Shown here one piece after another: positions 22,943-39,139 of a stretch of 64,000 nucleotides of DNA. Position numbers and translations under genes: made by a program. Positions within the stretch are counted from its first letter, which is position 1. Every line of letters begins with the position of its first letter. Under the pieces are notes generated by a model that did no database searches, was not told the origin of the DNA, and saw nothing but the letters and a program-made list of their open reading frames with translations. The stretch covers positions 186,001 through 250,000 of the forward strand of contig JAHBWE010000013.1 of NCBI GenBank assembly GCA_019637155.1. Direction: 5' to 3'. This DNA comes from Labilithrix sp. GTDB lineage: Bacteria > Myxococcota_A > Polyangia > Polyangiales > Polyangiaceae.

Positions 22943-23686
22943 TCAGGTCATCCCGCCCGCGGCCTTGTCGATCGCCCACGTGATCGAGCCGCGGAAGTCG
23001 CGGATGACGCGGCCCGGTGTCTGGCGGACGTCGCCGCTCGTCGCCCAGATGCGCTCGAGCGGCTCGTGCTTCGACTTGCCGGTGACGATGACCACGGTCG
23101 CCTTCGCGTTCTCGAGGACCGGCACGGTGAGGGTGAGGCGCGCCTCGCGGCCCTTGTCCTTCGCCTCCGGGATCGCGGCGACGAGGCGATCGGTGATCGT
23201 GTGCGCGTCGTCGCCGGGGAAGAGCGAGGCGGTGTGCCCGTCGTCGCCGACGCCCATCACGAGGAGATCGAGCGCGGGAAGACCGGCGACCTTGCTCGCG
23301 ACCGTGTTCCGCAGCTCCTCGTCGTACGCCGCCGCCGCCGCGCCGGGATCGTCTTCACCGCGCATGCGATGCACGTTGGCGGGCGGGATCGCGATCGCGT
23401 CGAGGAGCGCCTTCTTCGCGAGCAGGTAGTTGCTGCGCTCGTGATCGGGCGGCACGCAGCGCTCGTCGACCCAGTAGACGTGGACCTTGTTCCAGTCGAT
23501 CGCCTGCTTCGCGAGGAGCTGGTACGCGAGGACGGGGGAGCTGCCGCCCGAGAGCGCGATCGTGGCGACGGCGCGCTCCTTGATCGCCTCGTGGATCGCG
23601 CGCGTCATCCGCGCAGAGGCCTCGCGCGCGACCTCCTCCAGCGTCGGCGCCGCGATGAGGACGCCGGGGACGACCTTGGTCACCAT
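22943..23686 (-). CDS. pgl: 6-phosphogluconolactonase
   Basis: Hydrolyses 6-phosphogluconolactone to 6-phosphogluconate, the second step of the oxidative pentose-phosphate pathway. The 247-residue protein of the NagB/DevB type shows ATIALSGGSSPVLAYQLL, WVDERCVPPDHERSN and GVGDDGHTASLFPGD, the family signature. Start ATG 23686 overlaps the opcA stop by one nucleotide (TGATG). It is last in the gnd-zwf-opcA-pgl operon and ends 6 nt from the convergent lipoprotein gene. Confidence 0.95.
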   Translation of the reverse strand: MVTKVVPGVLIAAPTLEEVAREASARMTRAIHEAIKERAVATIALSGGSSPVLAYQLLAKQAIDWNKVHVYWVDERCVPPDHERSNYLLAKKALLDAIAIPPANVHRMRGEDDPGAAAAAYDEELRNTVASKVAGLPALDLLVMGVGDDGHTASLFPGDDAHTITDRLVAAIPEAKDKGREARLTLTVPVLENAKATVVIVTGKSKHEPLERIWATSGDVRQTPGRVIRDFRGSITWAIDKAAGGMT

Positions 23687-24822
23687 CAGGACACCGTGAG
23701 CCCGTCTTCGACGAGGGCCTCCGCGAACGCGACCGACTCGTCGAACGCGACGTCGTGGGCGGGGCGGTGGAGCGTGCGCTCGAGCCACTTCGCCGCCTTG
23801 TTCGAGCCGAGGCGCACGCGATGCTCGATCGGCGCGTGCGCGCCGAGGGTGAGGCGCCAGACGAGCACGTCGGCGTCGACCGTGGTCGCGGACGAGTGCG
23901 ACGGTCCGGTCGCGAGCTCGCGCTCGATCGCGCCGAGGAGCTTCGTGTCGCCGTCGGCGACCTCGACCTCGAGCGCGGCGAGGATCTGCGGCGCGGTCCC
24001 GGCGGGGCGGGGGACCGCGCCGAGCTCGATCGCGACGTTGCCGCCGTCGGCGTTCTTCACCCGCACCGCGCCGCCGAGGCGCGCGATCTTCCACCCGAGC
24101 CGCGTGCCCAGCCACCCGAGCATGAGCGCGGCCTCCGGTCCGATGCGCGCGCCGTGATCGCCGGCCTGCTTCAGCTTCACGCGGCTGATCTTCGGCGCGA
24201 GCTCGCGGTGCTCGGTCGCGTCGAAGAAGCGCGCGAGGAGCTCCTGCCACGCCGCGACGCGCGTCCAGGCGAGGTCCATGATCCGCGGCGCGTTCGGCTG
24301 CTTGCGCGCCCACGCTGCGACCTGGATGACGCTCGTGATGGAGGTGTACTCGCTGTCGAGGATGATGCGGTGCGCGTCGTTGGCGAGGTCCTCGAAGACG
24401 GGATCCTCGACGTGCACCTTCCCGAGCCACACGAGCGCGGTCGGGATCTCGGGGACGAGGAACGCCTCCATCGCGCTCGCGGCGCGGGCGGCGCCGTCGC
24501 CGCGGCACTTGAGGACGATGCGCTCGGAGCAGATCTTCTTGCCGCCCTCGAGCGAGCAGACCGCGGTCGCGGAGCCGGAGAGCTCGTCGCCGCTCGCGTC
24601 CGGCTCGATCGACGCGAGGATCGCGCGCGCGGGGATGCTCGCGGTCACCTCGTCGACGACGGGGGTGTAGCGATCGAGGAGCTCGCTCGTCGGCGCGACG
24701 ACCTCGATGTTCATCGTGCAGACGCGCGAGAGCGGCACGTCGGCCGGGTCCTCCGGCGCGGTCCAGAGCGCGCGCAGCTCCTTGTCGAGCTTCGCGATGA
24801 CGCCGGCGGAGGTGGTGCTCAC
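23686..24822 (-). CDS. opcA: Glucose-6-phosphate dehydrogenase assembly/activator protein OpcA
   Basis: OpcA is needed for oligomerisation and activation of glucose-6-phosphate dehydrogenase in cyanobacteria and actinobacteria. This 378-residue protein shows the family pattern: LWTAPEDPADVPLSRVCTMNIEV, CSERIVLKCRGDG, PTALVWLGKVHVEDPVFEDLANDAHRIILDS and DLAWTRVAAWQELLARFFD. The start is GTG 24822, overlapping the zwf stop (GTGA), so synthesis is coupled to its partner enzyme. No other function fits the position. Confidence 0.92.
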   Translation of the reverse strand: MSTTSAGVIAKLDKELRALWTAPEDPADVPLSRVCTMNIEVVAPTSELLDRYTPVVDEVTASIPARAILASIEPDASGDELSGSATAVCSLEGGKKICSERIVLKCRGDGAARAASAMEAFLVPEIPTALVWLGKVHVEDPVFEDLANDAHRIILDSEYTSITSVIQVAAWARKQPNAPRIMDLAWTRVAAWQELLARFFDATEHRELAPKISRVKLKQAGDHGARIGPEAALMLGWLGTRLGWKIARLGGAVRVKNADGGNVAIELGAVPRPAGTAPQILAALEVEVADGDTKLLGAIERELATGPSHSSATTVDADVLVWRLTLGAHAPIEHRVRLGSNKAAKWLERTLHRPAHDVAFDESVAFAEALVEDGLTVS

Positions 24823-26363
24823 GGCTTCCTCCAGCGCCGCCCGTCGCGCGCGAGGAGGTCGTCGGCCTGCTCGGGGCCCCACGATCCCGAGCTGTACGTC
24901 GGCGGCGCGGTCGACTGCTCCGCCCACGCGTCGATGACGGGATCCATGAACGCCCACTGCTCCTCGACCTCGTCGCGCCGGGTGAAGAGCGTGGCGTCGC
25001 CGCGCATCGCGTCGAGGAGGAGGCGCTCGTAGGCCTCGGGCGTGTTCGATCCGAACGCGCTCCCGTAGCGGAAGTCCATCGCGACGTCGCGGAGGATGGT
25101 GGCGTTCCCCGGCTCCTTCGTCGTGAAGCGGAGCGAGATGCCTTCGTCGGGCTGGACGCGCACGGCGAGGACGTTCTGCGAGATGCCGCCGTCGGGCGCG
25201 TTGAAGAGCGAGTGCGGCACCTTCTTGAACTGGATCGCGATCTCGGTCACGCGGCGCGCGAGGCGCTTGCCGGCGCGCACGTAGAAGGGGACCCCGCCCC
25301 AGCGCCAGTTGTCGACGAAGAGCTTCATCGCGACGAACGTGTCGATCTTGGAGTCCTTCGCGACGTCCGGCTCCTCGCGGTAGGCCTTCACCTCGTCGCC
25401 CTTCACGAAGCCGCGCCCGTACTGGCCGCGCACCACGCCCTCGCGCACCATCGTGCGCTCCATCCGGCGGAGCGACTTGAGGACCTTCACCTTCTCGTCG
25501 CGCACCGCGTCGGCCGAGAGCGAGATCGGCGGCTCCATCGCGGTGAGGCAGAGGAGCTGCATCAGGTGGTTCTCGACGATGTCCTTCGTGACGCCGGTCT
25601 GCTCGTAGAACTTGCCGCGCCCCTCGACCCCGATCTCCTCCGCGACCGTGATCTGCACGTGGTCGACGTGCTCGCGGCTCCAGATCGGCTCGAAGAGGGA
25701 GTTCGCGAAGCGGAAGACGAGGAGGTTCTGGACCGTCTCCTTGCCGAGGTAGTGATCGATGCGGAACACCTGCGACTCCGCGAAAGCGTGCGCGATGACG
25801 TCGTTCAGCTCGATCGAGCTCTCGAGGTCGTCGCCGAACGGCTTCTCGATGATGACGCGCGTCCACGCGCCGCCGGTGCGCTCGGCGGCGGCGTCGTTGA
25901 CGAGGCCGCCGTCCTTCAGGTGCTTCACGATCGTCTCGAACTCGGCGGGCGGGACGGCGAGGTAGTAGAGGCGGTTGCCGCGCGTGCCGCGCTCTGCGTC
26001 GAGCTCCTCGAGGTGCTTCTTGAGGTCGACGTAGGTCTGGGCCTGGTCGAAGGAGCCGCGCACGTAGGAGATGCCGCGCTCGAAGTCCTCCCAGACCGCC
26101 GCGTCGATCGGCTTCCGGCGCGAGAACTGCGAGACGCCCTCCTTCATCTCGGCGCGGAACTGCTCGTTCGACTTCTCGCGCCGCGCGACGCCGACGGTGG
26201 CGAAGCCGCTCGGGAGCGAGCGCGAGAGGCCGAGGTTGTAGATCGCAGGCATCAGCTTGCGTCGCGTGAGGTCGCCGGAGGCGCCGAAGATGACGAGCGC
26301 GCACGCGTCGCCGGTGCGGTCTTCCACGAGGCCCTTACGAAGCGGATTGGCGGGAGCGGTCAT
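24819..26363 (-). CDS. zwf: Glucose-6-phosphate 1-dehydrogenase
   Basis: Oxidises glucose 6-phosphate to 6-phosphogluconolactone with NAD(P)+. The 514-residue protein has the Rossmann start FGASGDLTRRKLMPAIYNL at 27-45, the EKPFG segment at 173-177, the active-site signature RIDHYLGKE at 201-209 and the downstream conserved WEPIWSREHVDHVQI-type stretch and VPFYVRAGKRL. Length is normal. It lies 9 nt after gnd and overlaps opcA by 4 nt, forming one operon. Confidence 0.97.
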   Translation of the reverse strand: MTAPANPLRKGLVEDRTGDACALVIFGASGDLTRRKLMPAIYNLGLSRSLPSGFATVGVARREKSNEQFRAEMKEGVSQFSRRKPIDAAVWEDFERGISYVRGSFDQAQTYVDLKKHLEELDAERGTRGNRLYYLAVPPAEFETIVKHLKDGGLVNDAAAERTGGAWTRVIIEKPFGDDLESSIELNDVIAHAFAESQVFRIDHYLGKETVQNLLVFRFANSLFEPIWSREHVDHVQITVAEEIGVEGRGKFYEQTGVTKDIVENHLMQLLCLTAMEPPISLSADAVRDEKVKVLKSLRRMERTMVREGVVRGQYGRGFVKGDEVKAYREEPDVAKDSKIDTFVAMKLFVDNWRWGGVPFYVRAGKRLARRVTEIAIQFKKVPHSLFNAPDGGISQNVLAVRVQPDEGISLRFTTKEPGNATILRDVAMDFRYGSAFGSNTPEAYERLLLDAMRGDATLFTRRDEVEEQWAFMDPVIDAWAEQSTAPPTYSSGSWGPEQADDLLARDGRRWRKP

Positions 26364-26372
26364 GGTGGGTCC

Positions 26373-27269
26373 TCAAGCCTTCGTGACGGCGTGGCCGCCG
26401 AACTGGTTGCGGAGCGCGGCAAGGACACGGAGCCCGAAGGGGTTGTCCTTGCGCGAGTCGAAGCGGGCGAAGAGGCTGAGCGCGATCGTGGGGAGCGCGA
26501 CGCCGAGGCGCACCGCCTCGTCGACCGTCCAGCGTCCCTCGCCCGAGTCGTTGACGTAGGCCTTGAGCTTCGAGAGCTCCGGGTCCTCGTTGAACGCGTT
26601 CTCGGCGAGCTCGCACAACCACGAGCGCACCACGCTCCCGCGGTTCCACACCCGCGTGACCTTGCGGAGGTCGAATTTGTAGTCGCACTCCTTGAGGAGC
26701 TCGAAGCCCTCCGCGTACGCCTGCATCATCGCGTACTCGATCCCGTTGTGGACCATCTTCACGTAGTGTCCCGCGCCGGCGGAGCCGAAGTAGGCGAGCC
26801 CGTCCTTCGGCGCGAGCGTCGTCAGCGCCGGGAGCACCGCCTCGTACGCGCTCTCGTCGCCGCCGATCATGAGGCAGTACCCGTTCGCGAGCCCCCACAC
26901 CCCGCCGCTCGTCCCCGCGTCGAGGAAACGGATCTGCTTGTCGGCGAGCTCCTTCGCGCGGCGGACCGAGTCCTTGAAGTTCGAGTTGCCGCCGTCGATG
27001 AGGATGTCGTTCGGCGCGAGGAGCTGCGAGAGCTCGACGATGGTGTCCTCGGTCGGCGCGCCGGCGGGGACCATGATCCACACCGCGCGCGGACCGCTGA
27101 GCTTCGCGACGACCTCGGCGAGCGACCCCGCCGCGACCATCCCTTCCTTCGCGAGCGCGGCGACGACGGCCGGGTCGCGGTCGTAGCCGACGACCTCGTG
27201 TCCACCTTTGACGAGGCGCCGCACCATGTTGCCCCCCATCTTGCCGAGCCCGACGATCGCGATCTGCAT
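26373..27269 (-). CDS. gnd: 6-phosphogluconate dehydrogenase, short NAD-type
   Basis: Oxidative decarboxylation of 6-phosphogluconate to ribulose 5-phosphate. At 298 residues this is the short form, not the 470-residue E. coli type. Features are the Rossmann loop GLGKMGGNM (7-15), Asp30 and Asp32 after the second strand (VVGYDRD), the IDGGNSNFKDS substrate signature, DAGTSGGVWGL and catalytic Lys171 in GHYVKMVHNGIEY. Acidic residues at the end of strand 2 favour NAD+ over NADP+ by family precedent. Start ATG 27269 is chosen because the Rossmann strand begins at once. It heads the operon with zwf, opcA and pgl. Confidence 0.93.
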   Translation of the reverse strand: MQIAIVGLGKMGGNMVRRLVKGGHEVVGYDRDPAVVAALAKEGMVAAGSLAEVVAKLSGPRAVWIMVPAGAPTEDTIVELSQLLAPNDILIDGGNSNFKDSVRRAKELADKQIRFLDAGTSGGVWGLANGYCLMIGGDESAYEAVLPALTTLAPKDGLAYFGSAGAGHYVKMVHNGIEYAMMQAYAEGFELLKECDYKFDLRKVTRVWNRGSVVRSWLCELAENAFNEDPELSKLKAYVNDSGEGRWTVDEAVRLGVALPTIALSLFARFDSRKDNPFGLRVLAALRNQFGGHAVTKA

Positions 27270-27909: not shown

Positions 27910-28245
27910 ATGAATTTCGAGCCCAACGAGACGAACAACCCCCCGACCGAAACCAAGACCGAGGAGACCAAGGCGACCGAGGCCGCCCCGGTGAAGGTCC
28001 GCCGTCCGCGAGGCTTCGCGGCGATGGACCGTTCGAAGGTGAGCGAGATCGCGAGCAAGGGCGGCAAGGCCGCGCACGCCGCGGGCACCGCGCACCAGTT
28101 CACGAGCGAGGAAGCTCGCGCGGCCGGCAAGAAGGGCGGAGTCGCTCCGCACGTCCGCCGTGGTCGTGGCCCGCGCCAGTCGGCGACGGTCCCGACCGCG
28201 ACGCCCGCGCCCGCCGGCGCGAAGGAGGAGGCGAAGTCTGCGTGA
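27910..28245 (+). CDS. KGG-repeat (stress-induced) protein
   Basis: A 111-residue hydrophilic protein with two copies of the KGG motif of bacterial stress-induced acidophilic repeats: KVSEIASKGGKAAHAAG and SEEARAAGKKGGVAPH. The N-terminus is acidic and Thr/Glu-rich, the C-terminus Ala/Pro-rich; it has no hydrophobic segment and is probably intrinsically disordered. Related proteins (GsiB, Con-10, YciG) accumulate in stationary phase or under desiccation or general stress. ATG 27910 gives the acidic start. A 184-nt upstream gap presumably holds its promoter. The role as a stress protein is inferred from the family. Confidence 0.78.
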   Translation: MNFEPNETNNPPTETKTEETKATEAAPVKVRRPRGFAAMDRSKVSEIASKGGKAAHAAGTAHQFTSEEARAAGKKGGVAPHVRRGRGPRQSATVPTATPAPAGAKEEAKSA

Positions 28246-28362: not shown

Positions 28363-28692
28363 GTGAGCCTTCCGCCCGTCCGCGTTCCACATCCGCACGT
28401 CGAGGTGCGGGACGACCTGTTGGGGGGGAGCCCCGTCGTCCGCGGTACGCGCGTCCCGGTCCGCCGTTTGTGGGCGTGGCACCGGAAGGGCGTCTCGGTC
28501 GAGACGCTGGTGAAGCGCTACCCGTCGCTCGGCTGGGCCAAGGTCCTCGGCGGCCTCGCGTTCGCGTACGACAACGAAGAGCTGGTCGAAGCCGACCTCG
28601 ACCGCGAGCGCGCGCTCCTCGAGTCCGAGCCCGAAAAAGTCCCCGGCCGCATGGACCAGACGACCCTCCCGTTCGGTGGTGCGAAGAAGTAG
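28363..28692 (+). CDS. DUF433 protein (orphan antitoxin-like)
   Basis: A 109-residue protein with the DUF433 core LLGGSPVVRGTRVPVRRLWAWHRKGVSVETLVKRYPSLGWAKVLGGLAFAYDNEELVEADLDRER, seen here between about residues 17 and 82 and containing the GxxVxxGTRVPV signature and a winged-helix-like segment. Family members often act as antitoxins paired with DUF5615 PIN-like toxins. No such partner gene is adjacent. The start GTG 28363 is taken; TTG 28333 would add ten residues. A C-terminal tail rich in Glu and Pro follows. Confidence 0.78.
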   Translation: MSLPPVRVPHPHVEVRDDLLGGSPVVRGTRVPVRRLWAWHRKGVSVETLVKRYPSLGWAKVLGGLAFAYDNEELVEADLDRERALLESEPEKVPGRMDQTTLPFGGAKK

Positions 28693-28755
28693 GACACGCG
28701 GCGCGAGCAGGCACGCGTAGAACTTTTCGCCGCCGAAGGCGTCCCATGTCCGATC

Positions 28756-29235
28756 ATGGGAGCCGCCGAGCGCGCAATGACCGAGAACGATGGGGGCGCG
28801 TCCGCGCTGTCGAGAGAGCACGTGGCCCTGATGGGCAAGGTGGCGATGGCGCTCGTCGGCGACGCCGCGAGGGTCGCCGACGTGCTCGAGGAGGTCGCGC
28901 GCGAAGCCGCGCGCAGCGACGCGCCGCCGAAGGCCGCGAAGGCGTGGCTGCTCGGTCTCGTGCGCGCCGCCTGCGCGAAGCAGCAGTCGAGGCTGCCGCT
29001 CAAGACGCGCGGGTTCGAGTCGGCGCCGACGACGGAGCGCGTCGGCGGGGCGGCGGCGTCGGCGCGGAGCGCGCTCGCGGCGCTGCGGCCGACCGAGCGC
29101 GAGGCGGTGGTGCTGTCGATCGTGGGCGGGCTCGGGGTCGAGGAGATCGCGACCGCGTGCAGCATCGACGTCGCGACGGCGAAGACGCGCCTCGAGCGCG
29201 GGCTCCAGCAACTGACGGAAGGAGGCGCACGATGA
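28756..29235 (+). CDS. RNA polymerase ECF-like sigma factor
   Basis: A 159-residue sigma-70-family protein. Region 2 at the N-terminus is degenerate (SREHVALMGKVAMALVGDAARVADVLEEVARE), but region 4 is clear: LRPTEREAVVLSIVGGLGVEEIATACSIDVATAKTRLERGL, the helix-turn-helix that binds -35 sequences. Start ATG 28756; ATG 28777 is an alternative. The stop codon overlaps the start of the next gene as ATGA. That gene encodes a large protein with an anti-sigma zinc-binding N-terminus, which marks this pair as a sigma/anti-sigma module. Loss of region 2 definition suggests a divergent ECF group. Confidence 0.82.
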   Translation: MGAAERAMTENDGGASALSREHVALMGKVAMALVGDAARVADVLEEVAREAARSDAPPKAAKAWLLGLVRAACAKQQSRLPLKTRGFESAPTTERVGGAAASARSALAALRPTEREAVVLSIVGGLGVEEIATACSIDVATAKTRLERGLQQLTEGGAR

Positions 29236-32200
29236 GCGCTGCGGTTTGTGGTCGGGCGCGGGCGGACATCGTCGGGATCCTCGAGGGCGACGAGGCGCTC
29301 CGCGATCACGTCGCGCAGTGCGACGACTGTCGCGACGCGGTCCACACGATCGAGCAGGTCACGGCGAAGGTCGCCCCCGCGGGCGACGACTTCGTCGTGA
29401 GCGACGTGCTCGCCGATCGCCTCGCCGAGATCGCGGCCGAGGCCGAGCGCGTGAGCGTCACGCGCGTGCGCACGGAGGTGCCGGTCACGCCGAAGAGCGC
29501 GCCGGCCGCGAGCGCGAAGAGCCGCCCGAGCCGCCGCTCGATCTGGCTCCTCGTCGCGGCGTGCTTGAGCGTCTCCGCGAGCGCGGTGATCGGCTTCTCG
29601 CTCGCCGATCGCCAGCGCTCGCCCGCGATGGCGGCGACGCGCGCGTGGCACGGCAAGGTCGCGAAGATCGCGCGCGCCGGCGCGGACGCGGCGGCCGAGC
29701 CGGGCATCTTCGTCGTCGACGGCAAGGACAAGAGGCCGCTCCTCGAAGGCGCCGAGGTGAAGGCCGGCATGCACGTCGCGACCGACGGCAAGACGCGCGC
29801 GCGCATCTGGCTCGAGGACGGGACGACGGTGGTGCTCGATCGCGCGACCGACGTGACGGTCGGGAGCGAGCCGCGCACGCTGACCTTGCACGACGGCGCG
29901 CTCCTCGCCGACGTCGCCCACATCGCGGGCGCGGCGCCGGCGAGGGTCCAGACGCCGAACGGCGAGGTCCGCGTCCTCGGGACGAAGCTCTCGCTCACCG
30001 CGACGCCGGAGCGGACCAACGTCGAGGTGCTCCGCGGCGAGGTCGAGGTCGCGGCCGGCGGCGAGGCGAAGCGGGTGGCGGCGGGGCAGGAGGGCGTCGT
30101 CGGCAAGGACGGGAAGGTCGACGTCGCGCCGGCGAACGACCTCGCGCAGCGCGCGGCGTTCGGCGAGCAGCTCATCGCGACGCACAACGAGGACACCGAG
30201 GCGCCGGCGAGCGGCCTCGGCGAGCTCCGCGCGAAGCAGCCCGGCAAGAACGACGAGAAGGACCACGCCGTCCGGCTCGCGCGGCACGCGGTGAAGGTCC
30301 GCATCGCGGGCAACGTCGCGCGCACGGAGATCGACGAGACGTTCGCGAACGACACCGACGCCGTGCTCGAGGGCATCTACCGCTTCCCGCTCCCGCCGGG
30401 CGCGCTCATCGAGCGGCTCGCGCTCGAGGTCGACGGGAAGCTCATCGACGGCGAGTTCGTCGACAAGGCGAAGAGCGCCGCGATCTGGCGCGGCGCGATC
30501 CAGAACGCGGCGCCGAAGGCCCCGAAGCCGAAGGAGCAGATCATCTGGGTCCCCGGCCCGTGGCACGACCCCGCGCTCCTCGAGTGGCAGCGCGGCGGCC
30601 GCTTCGAGCTCCGCATCTTCCCGATCCCGAAGAAGGGCGCGCGGCGCGTCGTCATCGCGTACACGGAGACGATCGAGCCGGTCTCGGGCGTCCGCCGCTA
30701 CGTCTATCCGCTGCCGCAGGGCGCCTCGAGCAAGATCACGATCGACGACTTCAGCGTCGACGCGCAGGTCGTCGGCCACGACGCGGCGACGCCGGTGCGC
30801 GCGCGCGGCTACGAGCTCGAGAAGAAGAGCGAGGGCGGGATCGATCGCCTCGCGACGTCGATGCAGGGCTTCGTCCCGTCGGGCGATCTCGCGATCGAAT
30901 ACGCGATGAACGACAAGGCGACCGACGTCACGGCGTGGGGCTACCGCGCCGACGCGCCGCCGCCGGATCCGAAGAAGCCGGATCCGATCGGGTCCGATCC
31001 GTTCGTCGCGATCGCGCTGCGGCCCAAGCTCCCGAAGTGGTCCGAGAGCAAGCCGCGCGATCAGGTCATCGTCGTCGACGCCGGCCGCACGATGTACGGC
31101 GAGCGCTTCGCGCGCGCGAAGCGGCTCGCGGTGCAGATGACGCAGGAGATGGACCGCCGCGATCGCGTCACCGTCATCGCGTGCGACGTCGGCTGCAGGG
31201 CGCTGCCGGGCGGCTTCGTCGCGCCGGGCGCGCCGAGCGCGCACGACGTCGACGCGTTCCTGACGAGCGTGACGCCCGACGGCGCGAGCGATCTCGTCGG
31301 CGCGGTGCGGGCCGCCGCGAAGCTGGGCGGGCGCGACTCCGCGCGCGATCTCCGCGTCGCGTTGCTCTCCGACGGCGTCGCGACGGCGGGTTATCGCTCG
31401 CCGGCGCGGGTCGCGAGCGAGGTCGGCGACGCGCTCGGCGATCCGCGCGCGCTCGTCGTCACGGTGCCGATCGGCGCCGACGCCGACACCGGGCTCCTCG
31501 GCGATCTCGCGCGCGGCGGCGGCGGCGTGGTCGTGCCGTACCAGCCCGGCCAGAGGCTCGAGGCGTCGGCGCTCGAGGTCCTCAACGCGACCTACGGCAC
31601 CACGCTCCGCGACGTCGAGGTCGTGCTCCCGGACGGGCTCCGCGAGATGGCGCCGGCGACGGTCGCGCCGATGCGCGCGGGCTCGGAGACGATCGTCACC
31701 GCGCGTATGAGCGGCGACGCGGTGAAGGGCGACATCGTCCTCCGCGGCAAGGTCGGCGGCGATCCGTTCGAGGCGAAGTACCCGATCGAGGTCCGCGCGA
31801 GCGACGACGCGGGCAACGCGTTCGTGCCGCGTCTCTTCGCGGCGGCGCGGATCGCCGATCGCGAGCGCACGCCGGGCGCGAACCAGGCCGAGATCGTCGC
31901 GCTCTCGCATCGCTTCGCGGTGCCGGCGCGCCAGACCTCGCTCATCGTCCTCGAGAGCGACAAGATGTTCGAGGCGTTCGGGATCGATCGCACCGAGCAC
32001 GGCCCGCGCTGGACGGGCGAGACGGTCGCGCAGGGCACCACCGTCGCCGCGATCCCGCGCGCGATCGCGGGCGGCGACGATTCGGACGGGCTCGCGAGCG
32101 CGTTCTCCGACGAGGACGGGGAGGAGAAGTCGAAGGCCGACAAGGGCCTCGGCCTCGGCAGCCTCGGCGCCGGGAGCGGAGGCGGCGGCTTCGGTCGCGC

Positions 32201-33587
32201 GGAAGCAGCTCCGCCCGCGCCCGCGCCGGCCGCCGCTCCGACGCTCTCGCAAGAGCAGAAGGCGGGGCCGGCGAAGCGGCGGCCGGCCGCCGACCTGGTG
32301 GATCCGTTCAGCGACGCGACCGCGTCGCGGCGCTGGCGCGGCGATCGCGGCGGGCAGTTCATGAAGAAGGTGTTCGTGCGCCGCGCGACGCTCACCGCCG
32401 ACGCGACGCCGGCGGTCTCCGCGGAGAAGGTCGCCGCCGCGCGCGCGGCCGTCGCCGCCGCGCCGGACGAGCGATCGAAGCACAAGGACCTCGCGAAGCT
32501 GCTCGCGCTCTCGGGTCAGCTCGACGAGCTGGAGGAGACCCTCGCGAAGTGGTCCGAGCGCGACCCGCTCGACTTCGACGTCATCGTCGGCCGCGCGGAG
32601 ATCGCCGCGCGCCGCGGCAACCGCGACACCGCGCTCCGCATCATGGGCGGCGCGCTCGCGGCGAACGCGCTCTCGAACGCGGACGCGTACACGATGGCGC
32701 AGACGGTGGCGCGCTCGTTCGAGCGGATGGGACGACCGGAGGGCTGCGCCTTCCACATCGCGGCGGCGGAGATGAAGCCGGCCGATCCCGAGGCGCTCGG
32801 GTGGGCGATCAGCTGCGAGCGCGCGGAGGGCCGTTCGGCCTCGGCCGAGCGCTGGCTCGTCGGGCTCAAGGACGCGCAGCGCACCGCGGTCACGAACATG
32901 CTCGCCACGCTCGAGCAGAAGCGGACCGAGAGCGCGCGCGGCGACATCGTCGTGAACGCGACCTGGAGCGGCGGCGTCGATCTCGATCTCGCGATCGTCG
33001 ATCCGTCGGGTCGTCGCTGCGCGGCGGTCACGCGGCTGAAGGGCGCGCGCGTCGAAGGCGCGACCGCGCGCGATCGCGAGACGCTCGCGATGACGTCGAG
33101 CGACGGCGGCTCGTTCGCGGTCGAGGTCGTCCGCGCGAACGCGGCAGAGACGACGCCGGTCAGCGGCAACGTGACGATCAAGGCCTTCGGGCAGACGCGC
33201 ACGGTGCCGTTCACGCTCACCGGCGCGCGGGCGCAGGTCGGCCGCGTCGACGTGCGGTGGGAGCAGGAGCTCGTGCCCGTCACGAACCCGGACGAGATCG
33301 CGAACGCGAACGTGCAGGTCGGCGGGGCGCAGTTCGATCGCGCCGCCGCCAACGCGTCGCTCAGCGCGGTCTCGCTGCGTCACTGCAGCGCGAGCGGGCA
33401 GGTCGGCACCGGCCACGCGACGATCACGTTCTCGCCGACCGGCGGCGTCTCGCAGGTCGTCGTCGACGATCCGACCTTCAGCGGCACCCCGGCCGGCCGC
33501 TGCGTTCAGACGTCGTTCTTCAACGCCCGCGTCCCCGCCTTCACCGGCGCCCCCGTCCGCGTCGGCAAGAGCTTCTCGCTTCAGTGA
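29232..33587 (+). CDS. Giant anti-sigma/FecR/VIT/vWA/AgmX-type transmembrane protein
   Basis: A 1451-residue single-span protein. It has a cytoplasmic zinc-binding anti-sigma motif, HxxxCxxC (His26, Cys30, Cys33), then one membrane helix (about 104-124). A FecR-like domain follows (about 165-300, LLEGAEVKAGMHVATDGKTRARIWLEDGT then VLGTKLSLTA). A VIT domain spans about 345-480 (GIYRFPLPPGALIERL) and a von Willebrand A-like domain starts at about 609. Its DxSxS metal site is altered to DAGRT (Asp616). TPR-like helices follow, then a DUF2135-like section (WSGGVDLDLAIVDPSGRRC) and an AgmX/PglI-like C-terminal domain with FSPTGGVSQVVVDD, FSGTPAGRC and NARVPAFTG. It is coupled to the sigma factor by a 4-nt overlap. 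This is a plausible signal-receiving anti-sigma factor with an exposed adhesive half; ligand unknown. Confidence 0.85.
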   Translation: MSAAVCGRARADIVGILEGDEALRDHVAQCDDCRDAVHTIEQVTAKVAPAGDDFVVSDVLADRLAEIAAEAERVSVTRVRTEVPVTPKSAPAASAKSRPSRRSIWLLVAACLSVSASAVIGFSLADRQRSPAMAATRAWHGKVAKIARAGADAAAEPGIFVVDGKDKRPLLEGAEVKAGMHVATDGKTRARIWLEDGTTVVLDRATDVTVGSEPRTLTLHDGALLADVAHIAGAAPARVQTPNGEVRVLGTKLSLTATPERTNVEVLRGEVEVAAGGEAKRVAAGQEGVVGKDGKVDVAPANDLAQRAAFGEQLIATHNEDTEAPASGLGELRAKQPGKNDEKDHAVRLARHAVKVRIAGNVARTEIDETFANDTDAVLEGIYRFPLPPGALIERLALEVDGKLIDGEFVDKAKSAAIWRGAIQNAAPKAPKPKEQIIWVPGPWHDPALLEWQRGGRFELRIFPIPKKGARRVVIAYTETIEPVSGVRRYVYPLPQGASSKITIDDFSVDAQVVGHDAATPVRARGYELEKKSEGGIDRLATSMQGFVPSGDLAIEYAMNDKATDVTAWGYRADAPPPDPKKPDPIGSDPFVAIALRPKLPKWSESKPRDQVIVVDAGRTMYGERFARAKRLAVQMTQEMDRRDRVTVIACDVGCRALPGGFVAPGAPSAHDVDAFLTSVTPDGASDLVGAVRAAAKLGGRDSARDLRVALLSDGVATAGYRSPARVASEVGDALGDPRALVVTVPIGADADTGLLGDLARGGGGVVVPYQPGQRLEASALEVLNATYGTTLRDVEVVLPDGLREMAPATVAPMRAGSETIVTARMSGDAVKGDIVLRGKVGGDPFEAKYPIEVRASDDAGNAFVPRLFAAARIADRERTPGANQAEIVALSHRFAVPARQTSLIVLESDKMFEAFGIDRTEHGPRWTGETVAQGTTVAAIPRAIAGGDDSDGLASAFSDEDGEEKSKADKGLGLGSLGAGSGGGGFGRAEAAPPAPAPAAAPTLSQEQKAGPAKRRPAADLVDPFSDATASRRWRGDRGGQFMKKVFVRRATLTADATPAVSAEKVAAARAAVAAAPDERSKHKDLAKLLALSGQLDELEETLAKWSERDPLDFDVIVGRAEIAARRGNRDTALRIMGGALAANALSNADAYTMAQTVARSFERMGRPEGCAFHIAAAEMKPADPEALGWAISCERAEGRSASAERWLVGLKDAQRTAVTNMLATLEQKRTESARGDIVVNATWSGGVDLDLAIVDPSGRRCAAVTRLKGARVEGATARDRETLAMTSSDGGSFAVEVVRANAAETTPVSGNVTIKAFGQTRTVPFTLTGARAQVGRVDVRWEQELVPVTNPDEIANANVQVGGAQFDRAAANASLSAVSLRHCSASGQVGTGHATITFSPTGGVSQVVVDDPTFSGTPAGRCVQTSFFNARVPAFTGAPVRVGKSFSLQ

Positions 33588-35596: not shown

Positions 35597-38500
35597 ATGA
35601 CCCAAAAGACGCCCAAGAGCGGCGACGAGGCGAAGAAGTCCGAGATCGGGACCGTGCTCGCCAACCGATACGAGGTGCTTCGCGAGCTCGGACGCGGCGG
35701 CATGGGTGTCGTCTACCTGTGCAAGGACATCGTCTCGCACGAGCGCGTCGCGTTGAAGCGACTGCGTCCGCCGGAGGAGGCGAAGGCCACGCGCGCGGAG
35801 GAGAGCTGGTGGTTCCAGCAGGAGGCGCGCGCGGTCGCGTCGCTCGAGCACCCCGCGATCGTGCGAGCGCGCGACTTCGGCACGCTCCACGACGCCTCGC
35901 CGTACCTCGTCATGGACGCGCTGCCGGGGCGCAGCGTGCACGAGTGGATGCACACGACCACGATGCCGTGGTCGGTCATCTGGGCGCTCGTCGATCAGGT
36001 CCTCGCCGGGATGGCGCACGCGCACGCGCGGCACATCATCCACGGCGACCTCAAGCCCTCGAACGTGATGCTCGATCTCGCGGGGGCGGGGAGGGGACCG
36101 CGCGCGTACGTGCTCGACCTCGGTCTCGCGTGGCTCCGCGAGTCGCGCCACGACTCGCGTCTCGACGGCGCGCCCGAGCCCGAGCTCGCGGTGCACGCCG
36201 GCGCGGGCACGGTGGGCTGGGTCGCGCCCGAGCAGATCCGGAAGCAAGCCACGCTCGTCGGCCCGGCGACGGATCTCTATGCGCTCGGTTGCATCATGTA
36301 CCGCGTCCTCACGGGCAAGGAGGTCTTCGAGGGCACCGCGCAGGAGGTGCTCCGCGCGCACAAGCGCACGCCCGTCCCCGCGCCCGTGCTGCCGGAGGGG
36401 ATCCCGCATCAGGTCGGGCTCTTCGTGCAGCGCCTCCTCGCGAAGAAGCCGTGGCATCGCTTCGAGCTCGCCGCCGACGCGCGTCGCGTCTGGGCGCAGT
36501 TCCGTCCGCGCCACGCGCCCACGCTCGAGGAGACGGTCGCGAGCGCGCCTGCGCCGCCGCCGGAGCCCTCGAGCTCGCCCGACATGGGCCGCGCCGTCGC
36601 CGCCGCGCGATCGCTCGCGCCCGGCCTGCTCTCGCTGCGGCCGTCGCCGATGGTCGCGCGCGAAGCGGAGCGCCAGGAGCTGATGGACCTCGTCATGTCC
36701 GTCGCGCAGGGCCAGCCGCCGAGCCACCGCATGGTCGCCCTGATCGGCGAGGCCGGAGTCGGCAAGAGCCGCCTCGCGGAGTGGCTCTGCGAGCAGGTCC
36801 ACGAGCGCGGGTTGATGTGGCCGCTCCGCGCGCGCTACGGCCGCACGCCCTCGCCGCTCGACGGCCTCACCGGCGCGGTGAACTCGTTCTACGGGCTTCA
36901 AGGCGCCGACCGCGAGACGGTGGAGCAGACGCTCCTCGATCGGTGGGAGGTCGACAAGACCGACAACGAGGAGCTCGCGTGGGTCGCGGCCGCGGCGGAG
37001 TGGCTCCGCCCGACGCCGCCCGGCGTGGTCGCGCCAGTCGGTCCCACCGGCAAGCGCTTCGTGCTCGACACGCCGGAGCTCCGCTTCGCCGTCGCGCGCC
37101 GCATCCTCGAGCGCATCGGCCACGATCGTCCCGTCTTCATCTGGTTCGACGATCTCCACCTCACGAGCGCGAACACGTTCGAGACCCTCGCGCGCCTGCA
37201 TCGCGACGCGACGAAGCTGCGCATGTTCATCCTCGCGACCGCGCGGAGCGAGTCGCTCGAGACCGATCTCGACGCGGCGGTGCGGATGGAGGCGCTGCGC
37301 GCGGACTGGAACGGCCGCGTCCTCGACCTCTCTCCGCTCGGACAGGAAGAGACCGAGGTGCTCCTCCGCGCGACCTTGCCGCTCACCTCGCAGGCGATCA
37401 CGGCGGCGGTGCAGCAGAGCCGCGGCAACCCGCTCTTCGCGCTGCAGCTCCTGCACGCCTGGGCGGGCGGCGGCTACCTCACCCTGGAAGGTGGAAAGTA
37501 CAAGGTCCCCGAGGAGGCGCTCCACGGCCGCGCGATCACGACCGCGGACCTCTGGGACGAGCGGCTCCGCGCGGTCCCGACCGACCTGCGGCTCGCGGCG
37601 TACGCGGCGGCGGCGCTCGGCGACGACGTCCGCGGCGTCGTCCTGAAGGCCCTCGTCGCCGCGCTCGGCATGGACTCGCGCGACGCGCTCGTGGCGCTCA
37701 CGCGCGCGCAGATCCTCCTCGCCTCCGGCAACGATCAGTTCCGCTGGCCGCACGCGCTGTTGCAGGAGCATTTGCTCGGCCGCCTCCACGAGCGCAACGA
37801 CGCGCCCGCGATCTTCCGGCTCGCGGCCAACGCGCTCGCGAAGCACCCCGAGGTCGGGTCGCGCCGCATCATGAAGCACCGCGTGCGGAACCTGCTCCGC
37901 GCGGGCGACGACGACGTCGCGGCGTCGCTGATGTTCTCGTTCATCGAGGGCGCCTGGGCGCGCGGCCGCGACACGGCCGCGACGCTCAAGGACCTCGCGC
38001 TCCTCGAAGGGCGCGTCTCGGGCGCGGCGGCGGCGGAGTACGCCTACTGGCGCGCGGAGGCGCTCCGGCACATCGGCAAGCTCGAGGAGGCGCGCGAGCA
38101 GGCGGAGACCGCGCGGCGCGCGTTCGAGCAGGCCGGCGACAAGTCGCGCGAGGCGCACGCGCTGCGGTTGCTCGGCCACCTCGCGAGCGACACCGGCGCG
38201 CCGGCGCAGGGCCGCCTCCAGGTCGCGCTCGCGATCACGCGCTTCGAGGAGCTCAAGGACGACCGCGGCCTCGCGGCGGCGCTCGTGGTGCTCGGCGAGA
38301 TCGACTACCTCCTCGGCGAGCACGCGCGCGCGCGCGAGGTCCTCCTCGAGGCGTCGCAGCGCTGCGACGCGGTCGGCGACATGCTCGGCGGCGCACAGTG
38401 CTTCATCCTCCTCGCGATGATCGAGACCGCGGTCGGCGGCTTCCGTCGCGCGCGCGATCTCCTCGTCCACGCGCGCGCGGCGTTCGACGCGATCGGCTAC

Positions 38501-39139
38501 CGGCTCGGCATCGCGCAGTGCGACGTCGTGCTCGGGCACGCCGATCACCGCGCGAACGAGATGGACGCGTCGCGGGCGCGCGCGCTCTCGGCGCGGGCGG
38601 CGTTCCGCGAGCTCCTGAACCCGCGCGGCGAGGCGGCGTGCGAGCGGCTCCTCGCGCTCATCGCGATCGACACCGACGACTTCGCCGCCGGCGGCGCGCA
38701 CGCCTCCGTGGCGGCGAAGATCTTCGAGCGCCTCCAGGACCCGTGGGGCGACCTCGAGGCGCGGCTCCTCCTCGCGCAGGTCGCGCTCGCGAAGGGGGAC
38801 GCGGAGGCGAAGGAGCTCGTCGCCGAGTGCGAGCGCATCGTCCTCGACGAGGCCGAGCCGCGCCAGCACCGGCACCTCACCCTCGCGTGGCTCGCGCAGC
38901 TCGAGCAGCGCTGGCAGGACGCGTCCGACGAGATCGACCGCGCGCGCGCGGCGTTCGGGGACAAGGCGCGCTGCGGCGACCACACCCCTCAGCTATTGAA
39001 GCGCTTCGCGAAGATGGACTGGCTCGGGCCGTCCGCCGGGAAGATCGAGCAATGGCTCGAGGTGGTGGAGAACGCGAACCCGGACGAGTCGGTGTCGTCG
39101 CGCTGGCCGACCTCGCCGCGCTTGTCTCGCCCGGGCTGA
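35597..39139 (+). CDS. Ser/Thr protein kinase fused to AAA-type ATPase and TPR domains
   Basis: A 1180-residue cytoplasmic protein. The kinase domain (about 25-300) has the Gly-rich loop GRGGMGVVY, Lys54 in VALK, an HGDLKPSN loop (Asp151) and a DLG in place of DFG (Asp174). The ATPase domain has a Walker A GEAGVGKS at 384-391 and a Walker B-like VFIWFDDLHL. Beyond about residue 760 come repeated helices with TPR character (AEALRHIGKLEEAREQAE, LLVHARAAFDAIGYRLG). This kinase-ATPase-TPR plan occurs in the myxobacterial 'adenylate cyclase/LuxR-like' sensor ATPases. The HRD-to-HGD change and DLG suggest altered, perhaps weak, kinase activity. A TCTAAC box lies 12 nt before the start. Confidence 0.9.
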   Translation: MTQKTPKSGDEAKKSEIGTVLANRYEVLRELGRGGMGVVYLCKDIVSHERVALKRLRPPEEAKATRAEESWWFQQEARAVASLEHPAIVRARDFGTLHDASPYLVMDALPGRSVHEWMHTTTMPWSVIWALVDQVLAGMAHAHARHIIHGDLKPSNVMLDLAGAGRGPRAYVLDLGLAWLRESRHDSRLDGAPEPELAVHAGAGTVGWVAPEQIRKQATLVGPATDLYALGCIMYRVLTGKEVFEGTAQEVLRAHKRTPVPAPVLPEGIPHQVGLFVQRLLAKKPWHRFELAADARRVWAQFRPRHAPTLEETVASAPAPPPEPSSSPDMGRAVAAARSLAPGLLSLRPSPMVAREAERQELMDLVMSVAQGQPPSHRMVALIGEAGVGKSRLAEWLCEQVHERGLMWPLRARYGRTPSPLDGLTGAVNSFYGLQGADRETVEQTLLDRWEVDKTDNEELAWVAAAAEWLRPTPPGVVAPVGPTGKRFVLDTPELRFAVARRILERIGHDRPVFIWFDDLHLTSANTFETLARLHRDATKLRMFILATARSESLETDLDAAVRMEALRADWNGRVLDLSPLGQEETEVLLRATLPLTSQAITAAVQQSRGNPLFALQLLHAWAGGGYLTLEGGKYKVPEEALHGRAITTADLWDERLRAVPTDLRLAAYAAAALGDDVRGVVLKALVAALGMDSRDALVALTRAQILLASGNDQFRWPHALLQEHLLGRLHERNDAPAIFRLAANALAKHPEVGSRRIMKHRVRNLLRAGDDDVAASLMFSFIEGAWARGRDTAATLKDLALLEGRVSGAAAAEYAYWRAEALRHIGKLEEAREQAETARRAFEQAGDKSREAHALRLLGHLASDTGAPAQGRLQVALAITRFEELKDDRGLAAALVVLGEIDYLLGEHARAREVLLEASQRCDAVGDMLGGAQCFILLAMIETAVGGFRRARDLLVHARAAFDAIGYRLGIAQCDVVLGHADHRANEMDASRARALSARAAFRELLNPRGEAACERLLALIAIDTDDFAAGGAHASVAAKIFERLQDPWGDLEARLLLAQVALAKGDAEAKELVAECERIVLDEAEPRQHRHLTLAWLAQLEQRWQDASDEIDRARAAFGDKARCGDHTPQLLKRFAKMDWLGPSAGKIEQWLEVVENANPDESVSSRWPTSPRLSRPG

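What the first reader, a model, noticed from the sequence alone, without database searches (positions are those of the whole stretch)
28756..33587. Sigma factor coupled to a 1451-residue anti-sigma protein with FecR, VIT, vWA, TPR and AgmX-like parts
Sequence shows a region-4-bearing sigma factor whose stop overlaps (ATGA) a gene starting with an HxxxCxxC anti-sigma motif, one membrane helix, then FecR-like, VIT, vWA-like, DUF2135-like and AgmX/PglI-like C-terminal regions. By family knowledge, VIT-vWA pairs bind proteins, and AgmX-type ends belong to motility and surface machines. I infer a single-protein receptor that senses an extracellular or contact cue and frees a sigma factor; a fusion of this breadth is unusual. 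The vWA metal motif is altered (DAGRT instead of DxSxS).
Basis: partly seen in the sequence, partly recalled or inferred. Interest (0 to 1): 0.72.

Follow-up and report, generated by a model that had tools for sequence, protein, structure and literature searches.

The report
Sigma factor held by giant receptor
A myxobacterial gene pair makes a transcription factor and the very large membrane protein that probably holds it captive; the pair is kept across a whole bacterial order, but in this organism's own lineage the transcription-factor half looks worn down, and in some close relatives it is missing while the large protein remains.

Summary
The window, from a Labilithrix-type myxobacterium, carries a 159-aa sigma factor overlapping (ATGA) a 1451-aa single-pass protein. 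Its N-terminus is a class I zinc anti-sigma domain (profile matches solved RsiW, E 1.6e-5). Outside the membrane come FecR, an ITIH-heavy-chain-like VIT-vWA core (Foldseek to ITIH1, 616 columns, E 8e-29), TPR, a beta-sandwich (PPC-like; DUF2135 not supported) and a small tail distantly like AgmX/PglI.

The pair is not a one-off: the sigma gene lies directly upstream in 57 of 62 testable orthologue loci across the order, with little other conserved neighbourhood. Most orthologues have an intact MIDAS (DxSxS), an intact sigma region 2 and no tail.

The new point: in the window's own clade the MIDAS is broken, the tail is gained, and sigma region 2 has lost its order-wide signature. In five clade members sigma and anti-sigma domain are both absent while the ectodomain stays, four of them with the same promoter-like element.

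So the receptor-to-sigma model is well founded for the order but doubtful in this genome. Cue, protease, regulon and binding are untested. New variant of a known kind.

The parts
28721..28743 (+). Promoter-like element AACTTTT-N9-RGGCGTC (spacing like ECF -35/-10) just upstream of the sigma gene
   Evidence: Present (12-14 of 14 positions) upstream of 13 of 15 own-clade loci checked, including four that have lost the sigma gene; only match in the 10.1-Mb genome at up to 1 mismatch
28756..29235 (+). ECF-type sigma factor, 159 aa (a start at 28777 is also possible); stop overlaps the next gene (ATGA)
   Evidence: Pfam Sigma70_r4_2 1.9e-11; orthologue profile matches solved ECF sigma factors such as SigE, SigH, SigW
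28813..28977 (+). Degenerate sigma region 2 (residues 20-74)
   Evidence: 12.6 bits against cut-off 24; lost in 8 of 8 own-clade sigma factors, kept in 47 of 55 overall
29065..29214 (+). Sigma region 4 (residues 104-153), -35 recognition type
29232..33587 (+). Anti-sigma receptor, 1451 aa, single pass, N-terminus predicted inside
29232..29441 (+). Class I zinc anti-sigma domain (residues 1-70): C6, H26xxxC30xxC33
   Evidence: Profile A7 against PDB: RsiW 5wuq E 1.6e-5; weaker RsrA 5frf E 0.04, DdvA 8rlz E 0.65
29541..29609 (+). Membrane helix, residues about 104-126, basic residues on the N-terminal side
   Evidence: Kyte-Doolittle maximum 2.2; no other stretch above 1.6
29775..30047 (+). FecR domain (residues 182-272)
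   Evidence: Pfam FecR 1e-13; 14 of 14 orthologues
30282..30662 (+). VIT domain (residues 351-477), start of the ITIH-heavy-chain-like core
   Evidence: Pfam VIT 2e-16; model pLDDT 87; Foldseek to ITIH1 6fpy E 8e-29 over 616 columns
31053..31556 (+). vWA domain (residues about 608-775) with altered MIDAS D616-A-G-R-T620
   Evidence: MIDAS table of 54 orthologues; vWA folds in Foldseek list; profile matches ITIH4 1.3e-30
32421..32927 (+). TPR repeats (residues about 1064-1232)
   Evidence: Model pLDDT 94; profile to TPR proteins, best E 1.5e-28; VIA Z 10.4, rmsd 6.6 over 162 residues to TadD
32946..33278 (+). Beta-sandwich (residues about 1239-1349), PPC-like rather than DUF2135
33336..33581 (+). 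C-terminal tail domain (residues about 1369-1450), two conserved Cys, in the own clade's orthologues only

Best explanation
This is a two-gene sigma/anti-sigma module of the window's order of Myxococcota. The second gene is a single-pass class I anti-sigma receptor: cytoplasmic zinc anti-sigma domain, membrane helix, then about 1300 residues outside the membrane (FecR, an ITIH-heavy-chain-like VIT-vWA core, TPR, beta-sandwich). Shown by computation: the parts, their order, and pair conservation. Inferred: in most of the order the anti-sigma domain clamps the sigma factor through its regions 2 and 4; ligand binding or tension on the ectodomain exposes the receptor to regulated proteolysis; the freed sigma drives a small set of genes. 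In the window's own Labilithrix-type clade this arm is being dismantled: sigma region 2 no longer fits the family, the metal site of vWA is broken, a small tail domain has been added, and in several members sigma and anti-sigma domain are gone. There the ectodomain most likely works as an envelope protein with a sigma-independent binding or structural role, and in this genome the sigma is at best a weakened or altered factor.
For: Parts. Pair conservation: sigma gene directly upstream in 54 of 62 testable loci by gene calling plus 3 by frame search; the ATGA overlap recurs; the neighbourhood is otherwise conserved only near the window's genus. One locus (L131) reads as one continuous ORF from sigma region 4 into the anti-sigma domain. 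Region-2 loss: 47 of 55 sigma factors match Pfam region 2 at E<=0.01, and the eight own-clade ones account for the rest; residues invariant in 46 outer sigma factors are replaced (Q->E 8/8, L->A 8/8). At equal receptor divergence (about 0.70 identity) region 2 is 0.55 identical in the clade against 0.81 outside. MIDAS change and tail map to one branch, support 100. Joint absence of sigma and anti-sigma domain in L064, L094, L116, L132 and L181, all in recognisable synteny with genes beside the window's pair; 2 losses on the tree, 2-4 in bootstraps; no family sigma at E<=1e-18 elsewhere in the genomes of L094 and L064. Precedents: class I anti-sigma binding mode (PMC7406223), RsiV as a direct protein receptor (PMC5014341), MIDAS-dependent binding by ITIH1 (PMC7170535).
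Against: No binding, proteolysis or expression was or could be tested. Own-clade sigma frames are all open, region 4 is retained and the anti-sigma domain keeps its zinc ligands, so the pair is still under some selection and may still work. Many loci are from metagenome-assembled genomes, so absence of genes could partly be assembly error. One outer locus (L129) keeps the anti-sigma domain without a sigma gene beside it, and L134 has an anti-sigma-like motif without a detected sigma.
Confidence: 0.6

Rival explanations
1. Fully working receptor in this genome too: the sigma has merely diverged in region 2 together with its promoter, is released when the ectodomain senses a ligand, and activates its own gene.
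For: Frames open in all own-clade sigma genes with upstream DNA; region 4 constrained; anti-sigma zinc ligands intact; a clade-specific promoter-like element AACTTTT-N9-RGGCGTC replaces the outer GGTCACRAA-N13-GNCAC element, as expected if sigma and promoter changed together.
Against: The element persists upstream of four receptor genes that have lost the sigma gene, one of them (L094) in a genome with no family sigma at E<=1e-18, so it is probably read by another sigma factor. Residues of region 2 invariant in the rest of the order are gone.
Confidence: 0.25
2. Sigma mimic: the own-clade protein no longer binds core polymerase but still binds the anti-sigma domain or DNA through region 4, acting as a decoy or adaptor, in the manner of the sigma-like domain of PhyR.
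For: Region 4 and anti-sigma domain retained while the region 2 signature is lost.
Against: No PhyR-like receiver or other partner recognised in the neighbourhood; region 2 still keeps a recognisable core in the clade, which could support weak activity.
Confidence: 0.15
3. FecI/FecR-type system: the FecR domain takes a signal from a TonB-dependent outer membrane transducer.
For: Pfam FecR domain; NCBIfam FecR model match at residues 177-287.
Against: The N-terminus is a zinc anti-sigma domain like RsiW, not a FecR N-terminus; no TonB-dependent receptor is recognised or conserved beside the pair.
Confidence: 0.05

Closest known systems
SigW/RsiW and other ECF sigma / class I anti-sigma pairs (RsrA, ChrR)
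   Same: Overlapping gene pair; zinc-type anti-sigma domain with HxxxCxxC (profile to RsiW 5wuq E 1.6e-5); membrane helix; zinc-less versions occur in part of the family, as published for class I anti-sigma factors (PMC7406223).
   Different: Ectodomain of about 1300 residues with FecR, ITIH-like VIT-vWA, TPR and beta-sandwich; sigma region 2 degenerate in the own clade.
RsiV, the lysozyme receptor of Bacillus subtilis
   Same: Anti-sigma factor whose ectodomain is itself the protein receptor (PMC5014341).
   Different: Unrelated ectodomain; no ligand known here.
Inter-alpha-inhibitor heavy chains (ITIH1, ITIH4) and bacterial VIT-vWA proteins (NCBIfam TIGR03788)
   Same: The VIT-vWA-hybrid core aligns with ITIH1 over 616 columns; sequence match to TIGR03788 E 4e-27, below its curated cut-off.
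   Different: Anchored by an anti-sigma N-terminus; MIDAS broken in this clade, intact in the rest of the order.
FecR of the ferric citrate system
   Same: FecR domain next to the membrane.
   Different: Different anti-sigma domain and no transducer beside it.
AgmX/PglI C-terminal domain (NF033768) proteins
   Same: Tail domain distantly alike; the same genome has a Zn-ribbon/GYF protein ending in a tail about 50% identical.
   Different: Score below the curated cut-off; tail also on short proteins with no recognised motility part.

Membership tests
ECF (group IV) sigma factor | Region 4 helix-turn-helix | tested here: met
   Sigma70_r4_2 E 1.9e-11, 43.9 bits against 25.7
ECF (group IV) sigma factor | Region 2 (core binding, -10 recognition) | tested here: inconclusive
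   Window 12.6 bits against cut-off 24, E 0.12; outer orthologues match well, best 1.4e-16
ECF (group IV) sigma factor | Binds core RNA polymerase and initiates transcription | not testable with these tools
   needs run-off transcription
Class I anti-sigma factor (zinc type) | HxxxCxxC signature in the N-terminal domain | tested here: met
   H26xxxC30xxC33 with C6
Class I anti-sigma factor (zinc type) | Sequence kinship with solved class I anti-sigma domains | tested here: met
   RsiW 5wuq E 1.6e-5
Class I anti-sigma factor (zinc type) | Encoded with and conserved beside its ECF sigma factor | tested here: met
   57 of 62 testable loci
Class I anti-sigma factor (zinc type) | Binds and inhibits the sigma factor | not testable with these tools
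   needs two-hybrid or co-crystal
ITIH-type VIT-vWA protein | VIT domain followed by vWA in an ITIH-like arrangement | tested here: met
   Pfam VIT 2e-16; Foldseek to 6fpy E 8e-29
ITIH-type VIT-vWA protein | Complete MIDAS motif DxSxS | tested here: not met
   Window has DAGRT; 48 of 54 aligned orthologues have D-x-S-[RQ]-S
FecR of FecI/FecR systems | FecR domain | tested here: met
   Pfam 1e-13
FecR of FecI/FecR systems | TonB-dependent transducer encoded beside the pair | tested here: not met
   none recognised in the window or conserved in related loci
AgmX/PglI C-terminal domain (NF033768) | Score over curated cut-off (40 bits) | tested here: inconclusive
   Window tail 16.7 bits, E 0.0059; 7 of 13 related tails match, best 2.2e-5
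DUF2135 | Pfam match in the beta-sandwich region | tested here: inconclusive
   No match at E<=1 in 26 orthologues; PPC in 10 of 26

The most novel reading that the evidence does not exclude
A natural series of states in one clade, from working sigma receptor to sigma-free envelope protein: the ITIH-like ectodomain has been released from transcription control more than once, sigma and anti-sigma domain leaving together, while a broken metal site and a new tail domain mark its change of job; where the sigma remains, as in this window, it is a worn or repurposed sigma mimic.
Probability: 0.4. Interest if true: 0.65.

Novelty: new variant of a known kind. Interest (0 to 1): 0.5.

Why it matters
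It adds an order-wide, apparently undescribed receptor type to ECF sigma signalling: an anti-sigma factor whose sensor is an ITIH/integrin-like VIT-vWA module, a fold known in animals for metal-dependent protein binding. A search of the open library for 'VIT domain', 'FecR' and 'sigma factor' together found no paper. The own clade offers a natural experiment on what a sensor does once its sigma factor is gone, and shows which residues go first. The module is present in sequenced Sorangium cellulosum and Polyangium strains, so it can be tested there.

Tried and rejected
DUF2135 for residues 1239-1349: no Pfam support. Motility function from the AgmX-like tail: the tail sits on seven proteins of the genome, several of them short proteins with no recognised motility part, so it is not a motility marker by itself. 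Regulon search by the promoter-like element: the own genome has only the own locus at up to 1 mismatch; in five outer genomes the strict outer element hits the own promoter in three, and the other eight hits lie mostly inside coding sequence, so no regulon was found. Autoregulation from element conservation alone: weakened, because the element persists where sigma is lost. VIA-align on the C-terminal model only tested the TPR part; absence of matches for the sandwich and tail says nothing. PDB profile searches with sandwich and tail gave nothing convincing. L061 could not be scored for sigma loss because its contig starts inside the gene; it was left out of the counts. The dN/dS comparison is only a crude Nei-Gojobori estimate on diverged genes.

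Full report
What is there. The sigma gene (28756-29235) and the receptor gene (29232-33587) lie on the + strand and overlap by ATGA. The sigma factor has a clear region 4 and a region 2 that falls below Pfam's threshold. The receptor has, in order: a zinc anti-sigma domain; one membrane helix at about 104-126; FecR 182-272; VIT 351-477; a vWA domain; TPR; a beta-sandwich; a small tail.

The anti-sigma domain. A profile of 40 orthologous N-termini, chosen to include the zinc type, finds RsiW (PDB 5wuq, E 1.6e-5), then weakly RsrA (0.04) and DdvA (0.65). C6 precedes the invariant H26, C30 and C33. About ten further orthologues lack the zinc signature, and three aligned early on (L045, L051, L056) show Asp/Ala in place of the cysteines; mixed zinc and zinc-less groups are published for class I anti-sigma factors (PMC7406223).

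The ectodomain. The model of residues 320-960 (pLDDT 87) matches inter-alpha-inhibitor heavy chain 1 over 616 columns (E 8e-29), which is the VIT-vWA-hybrid arrangement. The model of residues 1040-1451 (pLDDT 94) shows TPR helices, a beta-sandwich and the tail. The sandwich is nearer to PPC than to DUF2135. The tail is weakly alike to NF033768 and about 50% identical to the end of a Zn-ribbon/GYF protein in the same genome.

Conservation. A protein search of 58 relatives found matches in 52 genomes, many of them near-full-length orthologues. A scan of the public species genomes gave 129 relatives, of which 80 loci were kept, including Sorangium cellulosum, Polyangium and Sandaracinus. Among 62 loci with a receptor of at least 900 aa and more than 700 bases upstream, 54 have a sigma gene by gene calling and 3 more by frame search. 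Neighbouring genes are otherwise shared only near the window's genus. In more distant members of the phylum the FecR-VIT-vWA protein exists with a lipoprotein-like N-terminus and no anti-sigma domain (L163, with no sigma gene upstream; L166, whose contig ends shortly upstream); one member of the class has a sigma gene upstream (L167).

The own clade. Three changes mark it. First, MIDAS: 48 of 54 aligned orthologues keep D-x-S-[RQ]-S, while the window and its clade have D-x-G-R-[T/S/A]. Second, the tail is present only there; both traits map to one branch with support 100. Third, sigma region 2: the eight own-clade sigma factors scanned fall below the family signature, and they equal in number the eight of 55 that lack a Pfam region 2 match at E<=0.01. 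L065, a clade member outside the genus, keeps a borderline region 2 (23.7 bits against 24). At equal receptor divergence, region 2 identity is 0.55 in the clade and 0.81 outside; region 4 is 0.62 and 0.83. So region 4 is also faster in the clade, region 2 more so.

Loss of sigma. In L094, L064, L181, L116 and L132, all in this clade and all in recognisable synteny, no sigma gene and no anti-sigma domain is found upstream of or within the receptor. In-frame translation shows a hydrophobic stretch in the N-terminal part of all five; for L132 the called start lies inside it, so the true start is probably further upstream. The genomes of L094 and L064 hold no family sigma at E<=1e-18. The tree needs two losses; bootstrap trees give 2-4. 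These are mostly metagenome assemblies, so the number of events is uncertain.

Upstream elements. In 48 outer orthologues the 8-mer GTCACGAA occurs upstream in 27 (0.3 expected), as part of GGTCACRAA-N13-GNCAC. The own clade has AACTTTT-N9-RRGCGTC instead, 12-14 of 14 positions in 13 of 15 loci, including four without sigma. In the window genome it occurs once at up to one mismatch. Persistence without sigma argues that another sigma factor reads it; no experiment was done.

Mechanism, shown and inferred. Shown by computation: parts, order, conservation, clade changes. Inferred from families: class I anti-sigma factors bind sigma regions 2 and 4 (PMC7406223); an anti-sigma ectodomain can itself be a protein receptor with proteolytic release (RsiV, PMC5014341); ITIH1 binds and dimerises through its MIDAS (PMC7170535). 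The order-wide module most likely works this way with an unknown ligand; in the own clade the sigma arm is failing or changed, and the ectodomain keeps a separate role.

Prior art. One full-text search of the open library for 'VIT domain', 'FecR' and 'sigma factor' together found no paper; most subscription papers are not covered.

Noticed in passing
L158:1495-2894 (G000:C3, about 455-456 kb): A second ECF sigma gene in the same genome overlaps a 285-aa single-helix protein that ends in the same tail domain as the receptor; the tail has been attached to two sigma-linked membrane proteins.
   Followed up: partly
L131:3569-7984: One continuous ORF runs from a sigma region 4 (region 2 poor) into a zinc anti-sigma domain and receptor: a natural sigma/anti-sigma fusion, or a frame error in a metagenome assembly.
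   Followed up: partly
window 35597-39139: A 1180-aa protein kinase/ATPase/TPR-like protein downstream is far more conserved (76-94% identity) than its neighbours in related loci and stays near the receptor in the near kin.
   Followed up: no
window 22943-27269: Cluster on the minus strand that looks like oxidative pentose phosphate genes (6-phosphogluconate dehydrogenase, glucose-6-phosphate dehydrogenase and neighbours), syntenic with the receptor in the near kin, including sigma-less ones.
   Followed up: no
window 27910-28245 and 28405-28692: Small genes upstream of the sigma gene: a KGG-repeat protein and a DUF433-like protein; both recur in the near kin in this place.
   Followed up: no
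L159:1402-1785: A 127-aa secreted-looking protein consists of little but the tail domain, so the tail can stand alone.
   Followed up: no
L046:3912-7670: A second paralogue of the receptor, without a sigma gene beside it, lies on the same contig a few kb from the sigma-linked one.
   Followed up: no
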